A stretch of DNA of 64,000 bases from Haliotis asinina (taxonomy: Eukaryota > Mollusca > Gastropoda > Lepetellida > Haliotidae), in assembly GCF_037392515.1 (NCBI RefSeq), contig NC_090283.1:24616249-24680248 (forward strand), written 5' to 3'. Shown here in pieces: positions 11,500-51,232 of this stretch. Within the stretch, counting starts at the first letter, position 1. Each line of letters begins with the position of its first letter. The notes beneath the pieces are model-generated. The model saw only the letters and a list, made by a program, of their open reading frames with translations. It had not been told where the DNA came from and searched no databases. The position numbers were made by a program, and so were the translations under genes.

Positions 11500-12472
11500 T
11501 TGGGTAGAGGGGTGAAAAGGTGGTACTGAACTTGGTAGGGGTGGAGGGGTGAAGGGTGGTACTAAACTAGGGTGGCGATGGAGGAGTGAAGGGTGATACT
11601 GATGTTAGTGGGAGTGAAAGGTAGTACTGAATTGTGTGGGGATGAAGGGTGGTACTGAAATTGGATTGAGGTAGAGGGAGTGAAGGGTGGTACAGAAGTT
11701 GGATTGGGGTAGAGGTGATGGGTGGTACAGAAGTTGGATTGGGGTAGAGGGGTGAAGGTGGTACAGAAGTTGAATTAGGTTTGAGGGGTGAAGGGTGGTA
11801 TGGAAGTTGATTTGGGTAGAGGGGTGAAGGGTGGTACAGAAGTTGGATGGGGGTAGAGGTGAAGGGTGGTGCAGAAGTTGGATTGGGGTAGAGGTGAAGG
11901 GTGGTGCAGAAGTTGGATTGGGGTAGAGGGGTGAAGGTGGTACAGAAGTTGAATTAGGTTTGAGGGGTGAAGGGTGGTATGGAAGTTGATTTGGGTAGAG
12001 GGGTGAAGGGTGGTACAGAAGTTGGATGGGGGTAGAGGTGAAGGGTGGTGCAGAAGTTGGATTGGGGTAGAGGGGTGAAGGTTGGTATAGAAGTTGGATT
12101 GGAGTAGAGGGGTGAAGGGTGGTATGGAAGTTGGATTGGGGTAGAGGGGTGAAGGGTGGTATGGAAGTTGGATTGGGGTAGAGGTGAACGTTGGTATAGA
12201 AGTTGGATTGGAGTAGAGGGGTGAAGGTGGTACAGAAGTTGATTGGGGTAGAGGGGTGAAGGGTGGTACAGAAGTTGGATGGGGGTAGAGGTGAAGGGTG
12301 GTGCAGAAGTTGGATTGGAGTAGAGGGGTGAAGGTTGGTATAGAAGTTGGATTGGAGTAGAGGGGTGAAGGGTGGTATAGAAGTTGGATGGGGGTTGAGG
12401 GGTGAAGGGTGGTATAGAAGTTGGATTGGGGTAGAGGGGTGAAGGGTGGTATGGAAGTTGGATTGGAATAAA
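11500..12472 (+). repeat. G-rich 36-base minisatellite
   Basis: About 25 variants of a roughly 36-base unit, GGGTAGAGGGGTGAAGGGTG then GTACAGAAGTTGGATT, with higher-order similarity between blocks around 11700-12060. The unit is rich in GGG runs on +. It leaves the minus strand open in three frames, giving false Pro/Ser/Thr/Phe repeat proteins of up to 312 residues. Confidence 0.95.
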
Positions 12473-12480
12473 GGGTGGAA

Positions 12481-15208: not shown

Positions 15209-15571
15209 AGGCAGGACAACTTTGTGTTTGGTTTGCTGTGTCACTGGCAAACAGTGTAGATGTTGGAGAATTGATGTGATGTGGTCATGTCTCGGTGATC
15301 TTGTTGTATATATTACAGATTTCAAGACACATTGTAGAATTGTTTAAAAAAAATTATTTGTTATCCATAAAAAGTCTTTATGTCATAATGTAAATAAGAT
15401 TCTGCAAAATGTTCTACCAAAAGCAGACTTCAGTAGTTTGCAGATACTTCAGTTTTTGACAGCTGCCTGTCAGGTTTGCTGAATGACAGGTATTGACAGG
15501 TGAGGGATAGCTATATACATCAGGTATTGTCAGGTGAGTGACAGTTATATACGTTATTGATGTGTTTTCAG

Positions 15572-18984: not shown

Positions 18985-19112
18985 GTAACATGATAGAGAA
19001 GATGGTGGTGACATGCGGCACCAAGGTGGAGGTGGGGCCATGGTTAGAAACTCTCCGACAGCAGGTCAACCAGACGTATCATTCCTCCTCCACCAAACCA
19101 CAGAGCTTACAG
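18985..19112 (+). CDS. ARHGEF7: PIX exon 9: end of PH domain
   Basis: Residues about 275-317: NMIEKMVVTCGTKVE, then VGPWLETLRQQVNQ and SSSTKPQSLQ. This is the C-terminal PH helix (vertebrate SMIERILVSC, LQEWVEHLQKQ) running into the linker. The acceptor is TTTCAG and the first donor is GTGAGC at 19113. The last bases of the exon with this donor are repeated tandemly downstream (see the 47-bp array), so alternative donors exist. I chose the first donor because it keeps phase 0 into exon 10. Confidence 0.93.
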
Positions 19113-19494
19113 GTGAGCCACCCCCATACCTGACTCCCAGGTATTCACAGAGCTTACAGGTGAGCCACCCCCATACCCGACTCCCAGGTATTCACAGAGC
19201 TTACAGGTGAGCCACCCCCATACCCGACTCACAGGTATTCACAGAGCTTACAGGTGAGCCACCCCCATACCCGACTCCCAGGTAATCACAGAGCTTACAG
19301 GTGAGCCACCCCCCATACCCGACTCACAGGTAATCACAGAGCTTACAGGTGAGCCACCCCCATGCCCGACTCACAGGTAATCACAGAGCTTACAGGTGAG
19401 TCACCCCCATACCCGACTCACAGGTAATCACAGAGCTTACAGGTGAGCCACCCCCATACCCGACTCCCAGGTAATCACAGAGCTTTCAGGTGAG
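19102..19494 (+). repeat. 47-base array duplicating exon 9 donor
   Basis: Nine occurrences of AGAGCTTACAGGTGAG at about 47-base spacing. The first is the true end of PIX exon 9 with its donor (junction after 19112). The following copies each carry the last exon bases, a GTGAGC-type donor, a CCACCCCCATACC spacer, and CCCAGGTAATCACAG or CACAGGTATTCACAG, which looks like an acceptor. Copies differ at only a few positions. Confidence 0.96.
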
Positions 19495-19923
19495 TGGTCC
19501 GCTCATAGAGCTTGCCGTTGACTGGTGACTGACAATACCTCAATGATAATTGAAAACTATTTGAAGCATGGGTATCAGATCATACTAAGAAGTACAAGAG
19601 CCAATACCGAAAACAGCAGATAATAAGAAAAACAAATTTAGAGTTATCTCCCTTCCATCAATTTGCATTTGCAAAAAATCAGTAAATCATACTGGACTCA
19701 GTTATTTGAAATAAAGAATTACTGTGAATGTGAAATGTTACTGGCTTGTAAGCAGAGTATACTGAAAATAATAAAGAGTGGTCAGGGTCTGCTCCAGACT
19801 GAATTCTTTACAGCCCACAGTGATGTAACTGGCATGCATATGTATACATGCAGACTGTAACATAAAACAACAAAGAAACACTGACCTACCCTATATGATC
19901 ACACCAACACATGGCTGTTTTAG

Positions 19924-20158
19924 ATCTCCATCTCCACATCTCAGCCTAGCATCAGCACGGTGAAGACGCAGGCCAAGACTGCCCAGGTGATGCAGACCCA
20001 CATCCACCAGTCTCCTCCTCACCACAAGCCAGTGCACAAGACCTGGAGCATGTCCTGTCTCCGCCCCTCCCCACCACTCCGCCCCGCCCTCATGTGCAGG
20101 GATGAGGCACTTAAGAGCCCCAAGGCTAACCGCAAGTCCACAGCCAAGAGGAAACCAG
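19924..20158 (+). CDS. ARHGEF7: PIX exon 10: basic/proline linker
   Basis: Residues 318-396. It opens with a Ser/Thr/Gln stretch (ISISTSQPSISTVKTQ), continues with a His/Pro segment and holds WSMSCLRPSPPLRPAL, the counterpart of vertebrate WSLSCLRPAPPLRPSA. It ends with a Lys/Arg-rich piece, SPKANRKSTAKRKPG. The conserved SCLRP-PPLRP segment is a hallmark of PIX. The acceptor is TTTTAG and the donor is GTAAGA. It leaves in phase 1. Confidence 0.93.
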
Positions 20159-46756: not shown

Positions 46757-46980
46757 TCGTGTGAGTTGCTTCATCAGTCGACAGCCTCCATATAAGTTCC
46801 AAGAACTTTTATTTACATAGTTAATAGACAGGATAAATCATCGATCAGAAATCGCCAGACACTTTCTGGTTGTGTCAGGAACAGTTGGGAATTTTGGACT
46901 GACCGTCTTGTGAGTGTGTGGCTAGAACACTCAGGTTTTGTCTCAGAGACCGATACGGCCACGGGTCGTGGTCTGCCAAA

Positions 46981-48309
46981 ATGGCGCAGCCAGAGGGGCA
47001 AGGGGCCAAGGGCCAGCGTGCACCCGATTCTGACAATTTCTTTGAATTTGTGGAAAACCTCACGGAGGTTACCACCATTCCTTTGGAGAGTACGTCCACG
47101 GGAGGAAAGTCAAACTCTATGCAAGGTTTCCGGAGTGAAACTGAGGGGGTCAAGAGGAAAGCCGCATCTCATAGAGAACTTGACCCCGCGGGGGAGAAAC
47201 AGTCCCCCCTTGATGCCATTTTGCGCTCGCTACTTGCAAGCCAGCAGGCCCAGTCACACACCATGGCTCAGATCAGCACAGCGTTGGCTAAAATTAGCAA
47301 CAGCGCGGAGAAGGCCGAACAAGACCGAGAATCGGCGAGTGGCGGTCAAAACAAAAACAAACATGGCGGCGCCCAGGAAATGGAGGAGGGTGAAACGTCC
47401 GACGAGGATGAAATGGACATGTTGATACACAGGTGCCTTGATCAAGGGGAGGAGACGCAGACCGATGATGAGACCGACGATTTTAATAGTCTCATGAAAG
47501 ACATGACGGAGTTTTTCGGGGAAGAAGATAAAACAGGGCCTGTGATTAACAGCGACTTAGCTAGGTCTATCAATGATGGGCTCACTAAAACCCCGAACTT
47601 GGAAAAACTCAAAGCCATTATGGAAGCTTACAAACGCCCTAAAAACCTGGAATACTTGATGTCACCCCGCGTTAATGCCGTGATTTGGCATGAGGCGAGA
47701 GCTATGACCAGGTCCAAAGACATTAACCTGCAACGGATTCAAAATCTGCTGGACAAGGCCACTACTCCGGTTATTCAAATGATGGACTCCCTTATGTCGG
47801 CAGTTGTTCACAAGAAGGACATTAACCCTAAAGAACTCCTGGGGAAAACCAAGGATGCTGTTAGAATGTTGGTGGGCCTACATAGTGATATCAACAACAC
47901 AAGGCGAGAGAATTTTAAGCCAGACCTTCGTGGGCCTTATAAACGGTTGTGCTCAGTGGATACAGTGGCAACTACAAACTTGTTTGGAGATGACCTCCCA
48001 AAGAACATAAAGGACATAACAGAGTGCAAAGAACTGAGTAACAAATTACATAGCTCTGAGAAGCAAAATAGGAGTTTTACTGCTCCATCACCCTCTCCAC
48101 GTGGACATGGCGGAGCCCACCACGGAAACAGATTCAGGCCTTATGACTCACCTTATAGAGGACATAAGAAAGGTGGTTTTACTAAAGGTAAAGGTCAGTC
48201 CTCTCACTCAGGCACATATGGACCTACAGGCCGGCACAACCAAGGACCTTTTTTAGGCAAGCGACCGACAGGGTCACCATGGAAAAAAGGGGACCAGCGG
48301 AAACAGTAG
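46981..48309 (+). CDS. DIRS gag-like protein
   Basis: First frame of the element, 442 residues from the ATG at 46981; an in-frame ATG also occurs at 46918. I prefer 46981 because it sits in AAAATGG, a good initiation context. The protein is acidic in its middle (runs of Asp/Glu, such as DEDEMD) and basic with Gly/His/Arg in its tail, fitting a nucleic-acid-binding capsid-like role. No CCHC zinc knuckle is visible. Position and composition, not similarity, support the call. Confidence 0.75.
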   Translation: MAQPEGQGAKGQRAPDSDNFFEFVENLTEVTTIPLESTSTGGKSNSMQGFRSETEGVKRKAASHRELDPAGEKQSPLDAILRSLLASQQAQSHTMAQISTALAKISNSAEKAEQDRESASGGQNKNKHGGAQEMEEGETSDEDEMDMLIHRCLDQGEETQTDDETDDFNSLMKDMTEFFGEEDKTGPVINSDLARSINDGLTKTPNLEKLKAIMEAYKRPKNLEYLMSPRVNAVIWHEARAMTRSKDINLQRIQNLLDKATTPVIQMMDSLMSAVVHKKDINPKELLGKTKDAVRMLVGLHSDINNTRRENFKPDLRGPYKRLCSVDTVATTNLFGDDLPKNIKDITECKELSNKLHSSEKQNRSFTAPSPSPRGHGGAHHGNRFRPYDSPYRGHKKGGFTKGKGQSSHSGTYGPTGRHNQGPFLGKRPTGSPWKKGDQRKQ

Positions 48310-50414
48310 AACAGTCCTGTAACCAGGGTGATGTGGAAACCGCTCAGGTGAGCTGGCTACTTGACGGTATTGGCAATACACCACAAAATTTTATGGCAGG
48401 GAAAGTTGGCTTGTGTCATGACAATTGGAGGGTGATCACGTCAGACACGTGGACACTAAAATGCATTCAGGGAGCGCGAATAGAGTTTAAGCATCAAATA
48501 TACCAGCCCGTCATACCTACACCCTTTAGGATACACAGTGACGAGTGGGAGCGGGTAGACAACGAAATCTCCCGTTTGCTTCGCATTAGTGTGATTGAAA
48601 AATGTACCCATGTTCCAGGGGAATATATATCTAACATTTTCTGCAGGGAGAAAAAAGACAGTTCACTAAGAATAATTCTGAACTTAAAAAGCTTAAACAA
48701 AGAGGTTGACTCATCACATTTCAAAATGGACACTTTCAAAACAGCGATCTATCTGGTACAAAGAGACTGTTACTTTGCATCAGTAGATTTGAAAGATGCA
48801 TATTACTCTGTTCCGATACATGCTCAAGATAGAAAATTTCTAAGGTTTTACTGGAACAATGAGCTATATGAATTCACTTGTTTACCAAATGGATTAGCAT
48901 CTGCTCCAAGACTTTTCACTAAAGTTATGAAACCTGTCTTTTCAAGCCTAAGGAAACAGGGATTTGATAACACTGCCTACATTGATGACTCCCTGTTGGT
49001 AGGGGAGACGGAAGAGTTTTGCATGGAGAATGTGAAATGTACAGTGAACACTTTAGACACATTAGGTTTTACAGTTCACCCTGAAAAATCGGTGCTAAGG
49101 CCTACAAAATCCATTACATACCTGGGGTTTGTAATTGACAGTGAAACCATGACTGTAAATTTAACACAAGAAAGAGTAAAGAAAATTCAAAAAGTGTGTC
49201 GTGACCTACTGAAGTCCAACATGACTAAAACTACCTCAATCAGGACTCTTGCTGCAGCAATCGGACAACTAAATGCTAGTGGACATGGGATGATGTTTGC
49301 ACCCTTGTACTATAAACATTTGGAAATAGTTAAGAACAAGGCTCTCAAGAGGGAAAAAGGGAACTATGATGGGAAAGTTTTGCTTGATCATACTTGTATC
49401 CATGATTTAAAATGGTGGATTGACAATGTGGGGAAAAGGCCACAGTTTCTTGACCAACGTCAGCCAGATGTACTGGTAACCTCAGATGCCTCTAAGACAG
49501 GTTGGGGCGGAGTTATGAATGGAGTTAGTGCACAGGGACTCTGGTCTAGTGAGGAAAGTGAAATGCATATAAACTCCTTAGAGCTGTATGCAGCCTGGTT
49601 AGTGCTAAAATCACTCTGCGCAGATGGCAGTCACCTTCACATAAGAATAATGATAGACAATACCACTGCAGTTGCCTACATTAATCACATGGGTGGTACA
49701 AAAATAGGATGCAATAGCATAACAAGGAAAATTTGGCAGTGGTGCATCGGACGAGACATTTGGATCTCAGCAGCTTACTTGCCAGGGACACAAAACACAG
49801 AAGCAGACTGGCACTCTAGGAATATGTGTGATGATAAGGAATGGCAATTAGATTGCAGCGTTTTCCAAACCTTAACATCCATCTATGGTACCCCATCTAG
49901 AGACTTGTTCGCCTCACGGCTGAACACACAATTGGATAGATATGTGTCCTGGCACCCTGATCCTTGTGCAGAAGCAGTGGATGCCTTTTCTGTTTTTTGG
50001 GGAAATTCTTATGACTATATTTTCTGTCCTTTTAGTGTGATCGGACCAGTCTTGCAGAAGATACACAGAGAAGCGGCCGACGTGTTAATGGTGGTTCCCA
50101 TATGGACAACCCAGCCATGGTTCACCAAGCTGCTGCAATTGTTAGTAGATTGTCCAAGGCTGCTGCCAAGATCACCAAACCTACTGACACTGAAAAACCG
50201 ACCACAAGCTTTACACCCGCTTCACCAGAAATTGCGACTGGCAGCTGTAAAATTATCAGGGGATCTATTCAAACGGAGGGATTTTCAACAGCAGTTGAGG
50301 ACATCATACTGCACTCATGGAGAGAAACCACGCACAAACAATATGGGACATATCTCTCAAAGTGGAGGTTGTTTTGCAACAAATGGAGTATCAATCCCTT
50401 TTCACCCACTTTGA
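48279..50414 (+). CDS. DIRS reverse transcriptase / RNase H
   Basis: Second frame, 711 residues, overlapping the end of the gag-like frame by 31 bases in another frame. Reverse transcriptase motifs appear in order: LNLKSLN, SVDLKDAYYSVPI, GLASAPRLF and the catalytic YIDDSLL. An RNase H domain follows (TSDASKTGWGG, NSLELYAAW, IDNTTAVAYINHMGG). After it comes the segment with WHPDPCAEAVDAF and CPFSVIGPVL that is typical of animal DIRS polyproteins. It copies element RNA into DNA. Confidence 0.95.
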   Translation: MEKRGPAETVEQSCNQGDVETAQVSWLLDGIGNTPQNFMAGKVGLCHDNWRVITSDTWTLKCIQGARIEFKHQIYQPVIPTPFRIHSDEWERVDNEISRLLRISVIEKCTHVPGEYISNIFCREKKDSSLRIILNLKSLNKEVDSSHFKMDTFKTAIYLVQRDCYFASVDLKDAYYSVPIHAQDRKFLRFYWNNELYEFTCLPNGLASAPRLFTKVMKPVFSSLRKQGFDNTAYIDDSLLVGETEEFCMENVKCTVNTLDTLGFTVHPEKSVLRPTKSITYLGFVIDSETMTVNLTQERVKKIQKVCRDLLKSNMTKTTSIRTLAAAIGQLNASGHGMMFAPLYYKHLEIVKNKALKREKGNYDGKVLLDHTCIHDLKWWIDNVGKRPQFLDQRQPDVLVTSDASKTGWGGVMNGVSAQGLWSSEESEMHINSLELYAAWLVLKSLCADGSHLHIRIMIDNTTAVAYINHMGGTKIGCNSITRKIWQWCIGRDIWISAAYLPGTQNTEADWHSRNMCDDKEWQLDCSVFQTLTSIYGTPSRDLFASRLNTQLDRYVSWHPDPCAEAVDAFSVFWGNSYDYIFCPFSVIGPVLQKIHREAADVLMVVPIWTTQPWFTKLLQLLVDCPRLLPRSPNLLTLKNRPQALHPLHQKLRLAAVKLSGDLFKRRDFQQQLRTSYCTHGEKPRTNNMGHISQSGGCFATNGVSIPFHPL

Positions 50415-51232
50415 GGCAAGGTTTAGACTTCCTAGCTCAGCTGTTTAAGTTAGGTCTCAGTTACTCGGCAATTAACACCGCCAGATCAGCCCTGTCTGCT
50501 ATTGTGAAGACGCCAGAACTGACCCATCCACACTTTGGACAGCACCCTACAGTCACAAGATTTATGAAAGGTGTCTTTAATTTGAGGCCCTCCTTGCCTC
50601 GTTATAATGTGACATGGGACGCAAGCACAGTGATAAAATATCTAAAAGGTGTTAATGAAGATGAATCCTTGCTGTTGCTATCAATGAAGTTAGCAACTTT
50701 GATACTACTGCTGTCAGGACAGAGAATTCAGTCTCTCCATTTGATTGACAACAGGAATGTAGATATTTCTAACGGACAAGTCAAGATCAGATTTGGTGAC
50801 CTGTTAAAACAGACACGACCAGGATACCAACAAAAAGAACTAACTTTTCAGAGATACCCAGACAAAGCACTGTGTGTAGTGTCTTTGCTAACCCAATACT
50901 GTGAACACACCAAGGATCTGAGAGGAGAAGAGACAGCTTTATTCATAGCCACACAGAAACCACACAGAAGGGTCTCCAAGGACACCATTACTAGATGGGT
51001 GAAGACTATGCTAAAGAATGCTGGCATCAATATGAAAATATTTAAGCCTCATAGCATAAGGGCAGCCTCCACTAGCAAGGCCTGTAACCTTAAAGTACCT
51101 TTAAAAACAATACTGAATACAGCAGGCTGGAGCAAGGACTGTGTGTTTGGACGTTTCTACAACAAACCAGTAGAAAATGACAGTGTTTTCAGTGATGCTA
51201 TTCTATCACCTGAAAATTTGAGTAGTTCTTAG
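50102..51232 (+). CDS. DIRS tyrosine recombinase
   Basis: Third frame, 376 residues, overlapping the RT/RNase H frame by about 310 bases. Similarity to tyrosine recombinases starts near residue 60 with a core-binding helical domain (SWRETTHKQYGTYLSKW). The catalytic domain shows the family's Arg (SGQRIQSL), the H-x-x-R box (HSIR) and the nucleophile Tyr (FGRFY). In DIRS elements this enzyme joins circular DNA to the chromosome in place of a DDE integrase. Confidence 0.93.
   Translation: MDNPAMVHQAAAIVSRLSKAAAKITKPTDTEKPTTSFTPASPEIATGSCKIIRGSIQTEGFSTAVEDIILHSWRETTHKQYGTYLSKWRLFCNKWSINPFSPTLRQGLDFLAQLFKLGLSYSAINTARSALSAIVKTPELTHPHFGQHPTVTRFMKGVFNLRPSLPRYNVTWDASTVIKYLKGVNEDESLLLLSMKLATLILLLSGQRIQSLHLIDNRNVDISNGQVKIRFGDLLKQTRPGYQQKELTFQRYPDKALCVVSLLTQYCEHTKDLRGEETALFIATQKPHRRVSKDTITRWVKTMLKNAGINMKIFKPHSIRAASTSKACNLKVPLKTILNTAGWSKDCVFGRFYNKPVENDSVFSDAILSPENLSSS

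What the first reader, a model, noticed from the sequence alone, without database searches (positions are those of the whole stretch)
19102..19494. A donor splice site amplified nine times
The last bases of PIX exon 9 with the GTGAGC donor are repeated in tandem at 47-base spacing. Each unit has a usable-looking donor, and just before the next copy an acceptor-like CCCAG or CACAG. The array could supply alternative donors, decoy sites or a chain of mini exons. The coding end of an exon is thus part of a minisatellite, which is rare and could vary in copy number between individuals.
Basis: partly seen in the sequence, partly recalled or inferred. Interest (0 to 1): 0.72.

Follow-up and report, generated by a model that had tools for sequence, protein, structure and literature searches.

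The report
Minisatellite spanning a PIX splice donor
A short stretch covering the end of one exon and the start of the next intron has been copied about nine times in tandem in a PIX (Rho exchange factor) gene, most likely a tolerated minisatellite in which the first splice site does the work; the same thing has happened in several other genes of this animal.

Summary
At 19099-19495 there are eight 47/48-base units and a 20-base ninth. The unit takes in the last 14 coding bases of a PIX (ARHGEF6/7-type) exon and its donor, so CAG|GTGAG[C/T] occurs nine times; shuffles give none. The nine are among the 15 best of 2786 GT sites in 40 kb.
Ten exons read as one frame through donor 1. Any of donors 2-9 gives one and the same truncation (...SLQ-VSHPHT-stop), because copy 1 carries an in-frame TGA. 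Acceptor-like sites in the array are weak to middling, so a chain of mini-exons is unlikely.
The kind is known: human IFI6 and ABCA7 have minisatellites over a splice donor; in ABCA7 use of the second donor was about 2%.
Of 19 CAGGTGAG arrays on 76 Mb of one contig, four start at exon ends with homology support (MRP1-, ABCC-, PIPOX- and, more weakly, GABA-B-receptor-like). On 59.6 Mb, GT-broken control motifs give about 2.5 times fewer arrays per motif.
No RNA, second animal or second species was available.

The parts
18985..19112 (+). PIX exon (ninth recognised in the window), 128 nt, end of the PH-domain region, ends in phase 0 at ...KPQSLQ
   Evidence: open frame and exon chain; tblastn with a recalled human ARHGEF7; Pfam
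19099..19495 (+). minisatellite: eight units of 47/48 bases and a 20-base partial ninth; each full unit = 14 exon-end bases + GTGAG[C/T] + intron start
19099..19112 (+). coding part of the array: last 14 bases of the exon, same as the start of units 2-8
19113..19118 (+). donor 1 GTGAGC, the only one of the nine that keeps the PIX frame without a stop
19131..19133 (+). TGA in the PIX frame 19-21 bases past donor 1; copies 2-8 have CGA at this place
   Evidence: read; translation
19160..19495 (+). donors 2-9 (first intron bases 19160, 19207, 19254, 19301, 19349, 19396, 19443, 19490); 19396 and 19490 are GTGAGT, the others GTGAGC
19113..19157 (+). hairpin potential in unit 1: GUGAGC pairs with GCUUAC of unit 2, inner AUACCUG with CAGGUAU; weaker in later units, no compensating double change seen (by eye)
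   Evidence: z -5.3 in unit 1, -1.0 in unit 8
19924..20158 (+). next PIX exon (235 nt), opens in phase 0, ...KTWSMSCLRPSPPLRP...

Best explanation
A 47-base stretch across the 5' splice site of a PIX exon was duplicated in tandem and spread by slippage or unequal exchange into a minisatellite (inferred). The first copy keeps the true exon end and donor, so the spliceosome mostly joins donor 1 to the next exon and makes normal PIX (inferred from the open frame and from the precedents). The eight later donors are redundant. When one of them is used, the exon is lengthened and translation stops six codons past donor 1 (shown by translation), giving PIX cut after the PH region, or a transcript removed by nonsense-mediated decay (inferred). 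This is a small, leaky, copy-number-dependent loss that the gene tolerates. It is one of a recurrent class in this genome: minisatellites that happen to include a splice donor, which survive because the copy nearest the exon still works.
For: Array geometry. Ten exons read as one frame through donor 1; each of donors 2-9 gives the same stop. Same anatomy elsewhere in the genome, with the protein continuing across the array from the first donor: ABCC-like gene, recalled human probe residue 76 ends at the first donor and residue 77 opens the next exon; MRP1-like gene, exon to first donor PDB 1.6e-28 and a next exon after the array; PIPOX-like gene, probe residues 35-88 then 86-159. Precedent ABCA7: 25-bp VNTR whose first GT is the exon 18 donor; retention of one unit, a frameshift, given as 2 +/- 1% (PMC5954066, passages). 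Precedent IFI6 (PMC4526556, passage; the primary paper is not held). Minisatellites are common here: TRF blocks with units >=15 cover 8.3% of the window, and turning the exon edges around the window puts on average 2.0 of 24 inside such blocks against 1 observed. In 76-base local folds donors 1 and 2 are the most open (0.48, 0.49; others 0.22-0.43).
Against: No RNA was seen, so use of donor 1 is inferred. The later donors are as strong as donor 1, and donors 7 and 9 are stronger (12.4 against 10.9). For equal competing donors the one nearer the acceptor is often preferred (recalled from the work of Eperon and colleagues; I saw only citations of such work); that would favour the stop-bearing forms. 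In a 601-base fold donor 1 is not favoured (unpaired 0.22 for donors 1-7, 0.32 and 0.33 for donors 8 and 9).
Confidence: 0.7

Rival explanations
1. Regulated switch: the array is a bank of competing donors. Cells with different SR/hnRNP balance use donors 2-9 to make a short PIX without the C-terminal GIT-binding and coiled-coil parts, or to lower PIX by decay; copy number sets the dose.
For: All eight extra donors lead to one and the same stop, and the T that makes it is found only in copy 1. Donors 7 and 9 are stronger than donor 1. At ABCA7 VNTR length correlates with exon 19 skipping and with expression (PMC5954066, passages).
Against: No sign of selection: the T in copy 1 is a single difference, and absence of variation in the exon/donor part of copies 1-8 has P = 0.064. 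In the nine similar loci read on past the first donor, the stops lie at different distances (1 to 108 nt), as expected of chance.
Confidence: 0.17
2. Micro-exons or recursive splicing: AG|GT sites in the array act as 0-, 9- or 19-base exons or stepping stones; the 9-base one would add Ser-Leu-Gln in frame.
For: C[A/C]CAG|GT scores 4.2-5.3 on the gene's own acceptor matrix, inside the range of true sites; the 9-base insert keeps the frame.
Against: Introns between neighbouring units would be 28-38 bases; no T-rich tract; the in-frame micro-exon acceptor scores -0.3 to 2.8, below the weakest true site in seven of eight copies.
Confidence: 0.05
3. RNA hairpins in the array mask or present donors and so steer the choice.
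For: The array folds better than shuffles (z -3.9); in unit 1 the donor pairs with the exon-end copy of unit 2 (z -5.3).
Against: Base changes among units break or weaken pairs and I saw no compensating one (by eye); energy goes from -16.0 in unit 1 to -6.2 kcal/mol in unit 8; donors differ little in predicted access in the long fold.
Confidence: 0.04
4. Assembly artefact.
For: Nearly identical units are easy to misassemble; no second assembly was at hand.
Against: Units differ from each other at five positions; the array was found at one place only in an assembly of 159 contigs; other genes have the same kind of array.
Confidence: 0.03

Closest known systems
ABCA7 intron 18 VNTR (human; PMC5954066, passages)
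   Same: Minisatellite that includes the splice donor of an exon; the second unit's donor is used at a low level and shifts the frame.
   Different: 25-base unit that starts at the GT itself, so no coding bases are in the repeat; length variation and splicing were measured there, not here.
IFI6 (6-16) minisatellite with multiple splice donors (human; Turri 1995, cited in PMC4526556, passage; primary paper not held)
   Same: Tandem repeat whose units serve as alternative donors, by report with three mRNA species.
   Different: 12-base unit near the end of exon 2 (recalled) against 47 bases here; different gene; use of several donors shown there.
Intron gain by tandem duplication of AGGT segments (Rogers model; PMC4974935, passages)
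   Same: Tandem duplication across a splice signal makes new GT and AG sites.
   Different: Here the donor was there already and no new intron is shown; the array runs from an exon end into an existing intron.
Donor-spanning minisatellites in other genes of the same genome (L006, L007, L025, L040)
   Same: Array opens inside a coding exon end; in L007, L025 and L040 the first donor is the one that continues the protein by homology.
   Different: Unrelated unit sequences and lengths (53, 57, 54, 32 bases).

Membership tests
Minisatellite | Head-to-tail units of about 10-100 bases, high identity | tested here: met
   47 bases, 8.4 copies, 96%
Minisatellite | Copy number varies between individuals | not testable with these tools
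   one assembly only
Donor-spanning minisatellite (IFI6/ABCA7 kind) | A true exon donor lies in the first unit | tested here: met
   exon chain and frame, (by frame and homology, not by RNA)
Donor-spanning minisatellite (IFI6/ABCA7 kind) | Every unit repeats a donor match | tested here: met
   9 of 9 copies CAG|GTGAG[C/T]
Donor-spanning minisatellite (IFI6/ABCA7 kind) | More than one of the donors is used in RNA | not testable with these tools
   no RNA data; a DNA search found no retrocopy of the spliced exons in the genome
Intron gain by AGGT duplication | A new intron between duplicated AGGT sites | tested here: inconclusive
   AG|GT sites present; introns between neighbours 28-47 bases; acceptors weak to middling
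Recursive splicing site | Pyrimidine tract + AG|GT with a good acceptor and donor half | tested here: inconclusive
   C[A/C]CAG|GTA[A/T]TC: acceptor half 4.2-5.3, donor half 3.8-6.8; no T-rich tract
PIX (ARHGEF6/7) gene | RhoGEF-PH and the RhoGEF6/7-specific region | tested here: met
   Pfam PF00621 1.1e-35, PF16614 2e-9, PF00169 8e-7

The most novel reading that the evidence does not exclude
In this genome splice donors are captured by minisatellites again and again, so that dozens to hundreds of genes carry banks of extra donors whose number can vary between animals (four homology-supported cases for one donor motif on 76 of 1143 Mb would scale to about 60; the nine judged by eye to about 135). 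This makes a hypervariable layer of unproductive or alternative splicing, and perhaps a one-sided one, with donors tolerated and acceptors not.
Probability: 0.27. Interest if true: 0.72.

Novelty: new member of a known kind. Interest (0 to 1): 0.42.

Why it matters
As a single case it adds an example with coding bases inside the unit to IFI6 and ABCA7. As a class it offers natural experiments: unrelated genes in one animal with many near-identical donors in tandem, in which the rule by which the spliceosome picks among equal sites, and the effect of copy number, could be read straight from long RNA reads.

Tried and rejected
Retrocopy of spliced PIX mRNA that would show the junction used: none; the three exons match only at the locus. 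Search of bacterial/archaeal contigs for a stray match: 0. RNA structure as a conserved element: rejected, changes break or weaken pairs. Purifying selection on the donor part of the unit: P = 0.064, not shown. A codon-usage score to tell exon-ended arrays from controls: did not separate them (Mann-Whitney P = 0.19, 19 against 16). Open frame of 30 or more codons up to the first motif: 10 of 19 test arrays against 7 of 16 control arrays, P = 0.43 (counts read, test); if 27 or more of the 30 codons before the array must be open too, 10 of 19 against 6 of 16, P = 0.29. So an open frame alone is no evidence and I rest on the four homology-supported loci; the control arrays were not looked at for homology. 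One of the 17 control arrays (C1:59639241) was not fetched. Family and structure look-ups that found nothing: PDB for the L006 exon and the L040 exon; Pfam up to E = 1 for the exons of L023, L033, L034 and of L038, L040, L043, and only an unconvincing 0.18 for L044. A first cover estimate used 20 arrays picked by hand (7.9%, mean 1.9 edges) and left out seven small ones; one search replaces it. A search for tandem CAGGTAAG donors was sent and never answered; an acceptor-motif control was wanted and not sent.

Full report
What was checked. The array is real. TRF gives 19099-19494, period 47, 8.4 copies, 96% match. The core motif occurs nine times with at most three mismatches and not once in 100 shuffles of the window. 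Units 1-8 differ at positions 20, 30, 33, 39 and 46 of the unit, and unit 5 has one extra C. The ninth copy stops after about 20 bases and has CTTTCAG|GTGAGTGG.

The host gene. I mapped 12 internal exons with GT/AG ends. The first ten join into a single open frame of about 395 codons. Pfam finds RhoGEF (1.1e-35), the RhoGEF6/7-specific region PF16614 (2e-9) and PH (8e-7). The exon with the array is 18985-19112, ends in phase 0 with CCA CAG AGC TTA CAG, and the next exon is 19924-20158. So 14 coding bases and the donor are part of the repeat unit.

How good are the sites. With recalled consensus weights the array donor CAG|GTGAGC scores 10.9; 15 of 2786 GT sites in 5-45 kb score as high, and nine of these are the array. 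With a matrix from the 11 other PIX donors it is 19 of 2786. The AG sites are less impressive. On a matrix from the gene's 12 acceptors (true sites 2.3 to 10.9 when left out in turn), C[A/C]CAG|GT scores 4.2 to 5.3, and the site for a 9-base in-frame micro-exon -0.3 to 2.8 in copies 2-9. Introns between neighbouring units would be 28 or 38 bases.

What use of the later donors would do. I translated all nine options. Only donor 1 gives PIX. Donors 2 to 9 lengthen the exon by 47 to 377 bases, and in all eight the frame meets TGA after VSHPHT. The T of that TGA is found in copy 1 only; copies 2-8 have CGA. Skipping the next exon also shifts the frame.

Structure. The array RNA folds better than shuffles (z -3.9). 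In unit 1 the donor GUGAGC can pair with GCUUAC of unit 2 around a perfect AUACCUG/CAGGUAU stem; z is -5.3 there and -1.0 in unit 8. Changes between units break or weaken pairs and I saw none that restores one, so I do not count this as a maintained element. Predicted access of the donors is the same for donors 1-7 in a 601-base fold (0.22) and somewhat higher for donors 1-2 in 76-base folds.

Is it unique. The unit was found at this one place in the assembly (1.143 Gb, 159 contigs; window at C4:24616249-24680248). But a search for three CAGGTGAG at 30-60 base spacing gave 2517 forward and 828 reverse matches against 146 and 137 for the same pattern read backwards. Large arrays count many times in these figures. 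A closer control, CAGHTGAG with the donor GT broken, gave 1195 + 962 matches for three motifs together, that is about 719 per motif against 3345. Counting separate arrays by hand in the two capped lists, on the first 59.6 Mb of contig C1, there are 14 for CAGGTGAG and 17 for the three control motifs together (5.7 each); binomial P = 0.012. Six of the 14 are among those that I judged to start in an exon; without them the remaining eight are no excess (P = 0.27), though no control array was taken out in return.

What these arrays are. The list holds 19 separate arrays on C1 up to 76.4 Mb; I fetched sequence for all 19. In nine an open frame runs up to the first donor and looked to me like an exon end (L006, L007, L023, L025, L033, L038, L040, L043, L044); in one (L034) the array starts 35 bases after an apparent donor; in nine I saw no exon. 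Open frame alone proves nothing: 30 or more open codons up to the first motif are found in 10 of 19 (L048, a second fetch of an array that I had judged to have no exon, passes) and in 7 of 16 control arrays fetched (P = 0.43), and a codon-usage score did not separate the sets (P = 0.19). Homology supports four. L007: the exon before the array matches MRP1 (PDB, 1.6e-28) and a next exon follows the array; a further, diverged copy of the exon end lies between. L025/L051: ABCC-like exon (PDB 3.7e-7); the recalled human protein goes on from residue 76 before the array to residue 77 after it. L040: PIPOX-like, residues 35-88 before and 86-159 after, with the recalled human protein; Pfam and PDB found nothing for that exon alone. 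L006: GABA-B-receptor-like, the weakest; Pfam 7tm_3 0.0028, below the curated cut-off, no PDB match, and later exons downstream at 0.006 and 1.2e-13 with the recalled human protein. The exons of L023, L033, L038, L043 and L044 have no homology support. In the nine loci reading on past the first donor meets a stop within 1 to 108 bases. In the three genes with a matched next exon (L007, L025, L040) the first donor is the one that continues the protein. That is the main indirect support for donor 1 in PIX.

How common are minisatellites here. TRF blocks with units of 15 or more cover 8.3% of the window (28 blocks); arrays with units of 30-60 and 2.8 or more copies cover 2765 of 64000 bases of the window, and 10.6% if ten stretches near other arrays, a biased sample, are added. 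Turning the 24 PIX exon edges around the window puts on average 2.0 in such blocks, at least one in 76% of turns; one is observed. So chance placement explains an array over a donor; nothing shows that donors attract them, though the excess over the GT-broken control leaves that open.

What is known. In human ABCA7 a 25-base VNTR begins at the exon 18 donor; one-unit retention is given as 2 +/- 1% and shifts the frame, and exon 19 skipping grows with length (PMC5954066, passages). In human IFI6 repeat units serve as alternative donors (PMC4526556, passage; the primary paper is not held). Repeats at exon-intron edges that may form new introns are described for human paralogues (PMC2812944, passages), and tandem duplication as a source of introns (PMC4974935, passages). 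My searches listed no paper whose title or abstract start is about donor-spanning minisatellites as a genome-wide class; I saw listings only, in an open-licence library, so this is a weak negative.

Verdict. Observation confirmed; a tolerated donor-spanning minisatellite of a known kind, recurrent in this genome; first donor productive by inference. The animal is not named by any tool; some repeats look like those of abalone (recalled, not tested).

Noticed in passing
46903-51229 +: Retrotransposon with reverse transcriptase (Pfam RVT_1 2e-22) and a tyrosine-recombinase type integrase (PF00589 8.2e-11), as in DIRS/Ngaro-like elements (class recalled).
   Followed up: partly
15487-15552 +: About two copies of a 34-base unit with CAGGTGAG inside a PIX intron, ending about 20 bases before the next acceptor; a small donor-like duplication that is not at an exon end.
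   Followed up: no
L044 (C1:76355700-76359800), reverse strand: 45-base donor-like array of 46.9 copies (2.1 kb) opening at an open frame, without homology support.
   Followed up: partly
L042 (C1:71388900-71395900): About 100 copies of a 37-base CAGGTGAG-bearing unit (3.8 kb) with no exon seen; it inflates raw match counts.
   Followed up: no
11639-12475 +: G-rich 37-base minisatellite of 22.8 copies in a PIX intron, in a stretch with strong GC skew.
   Followed up: no
L007:1353-2176: MRP1-like gene: 57-base unit, a multiple of three, repeating HRLNTIMDYDR; in the eight matched copies TGA follows at once from the donor, in a ninth, diverged one it does not.
   Followed up: yes
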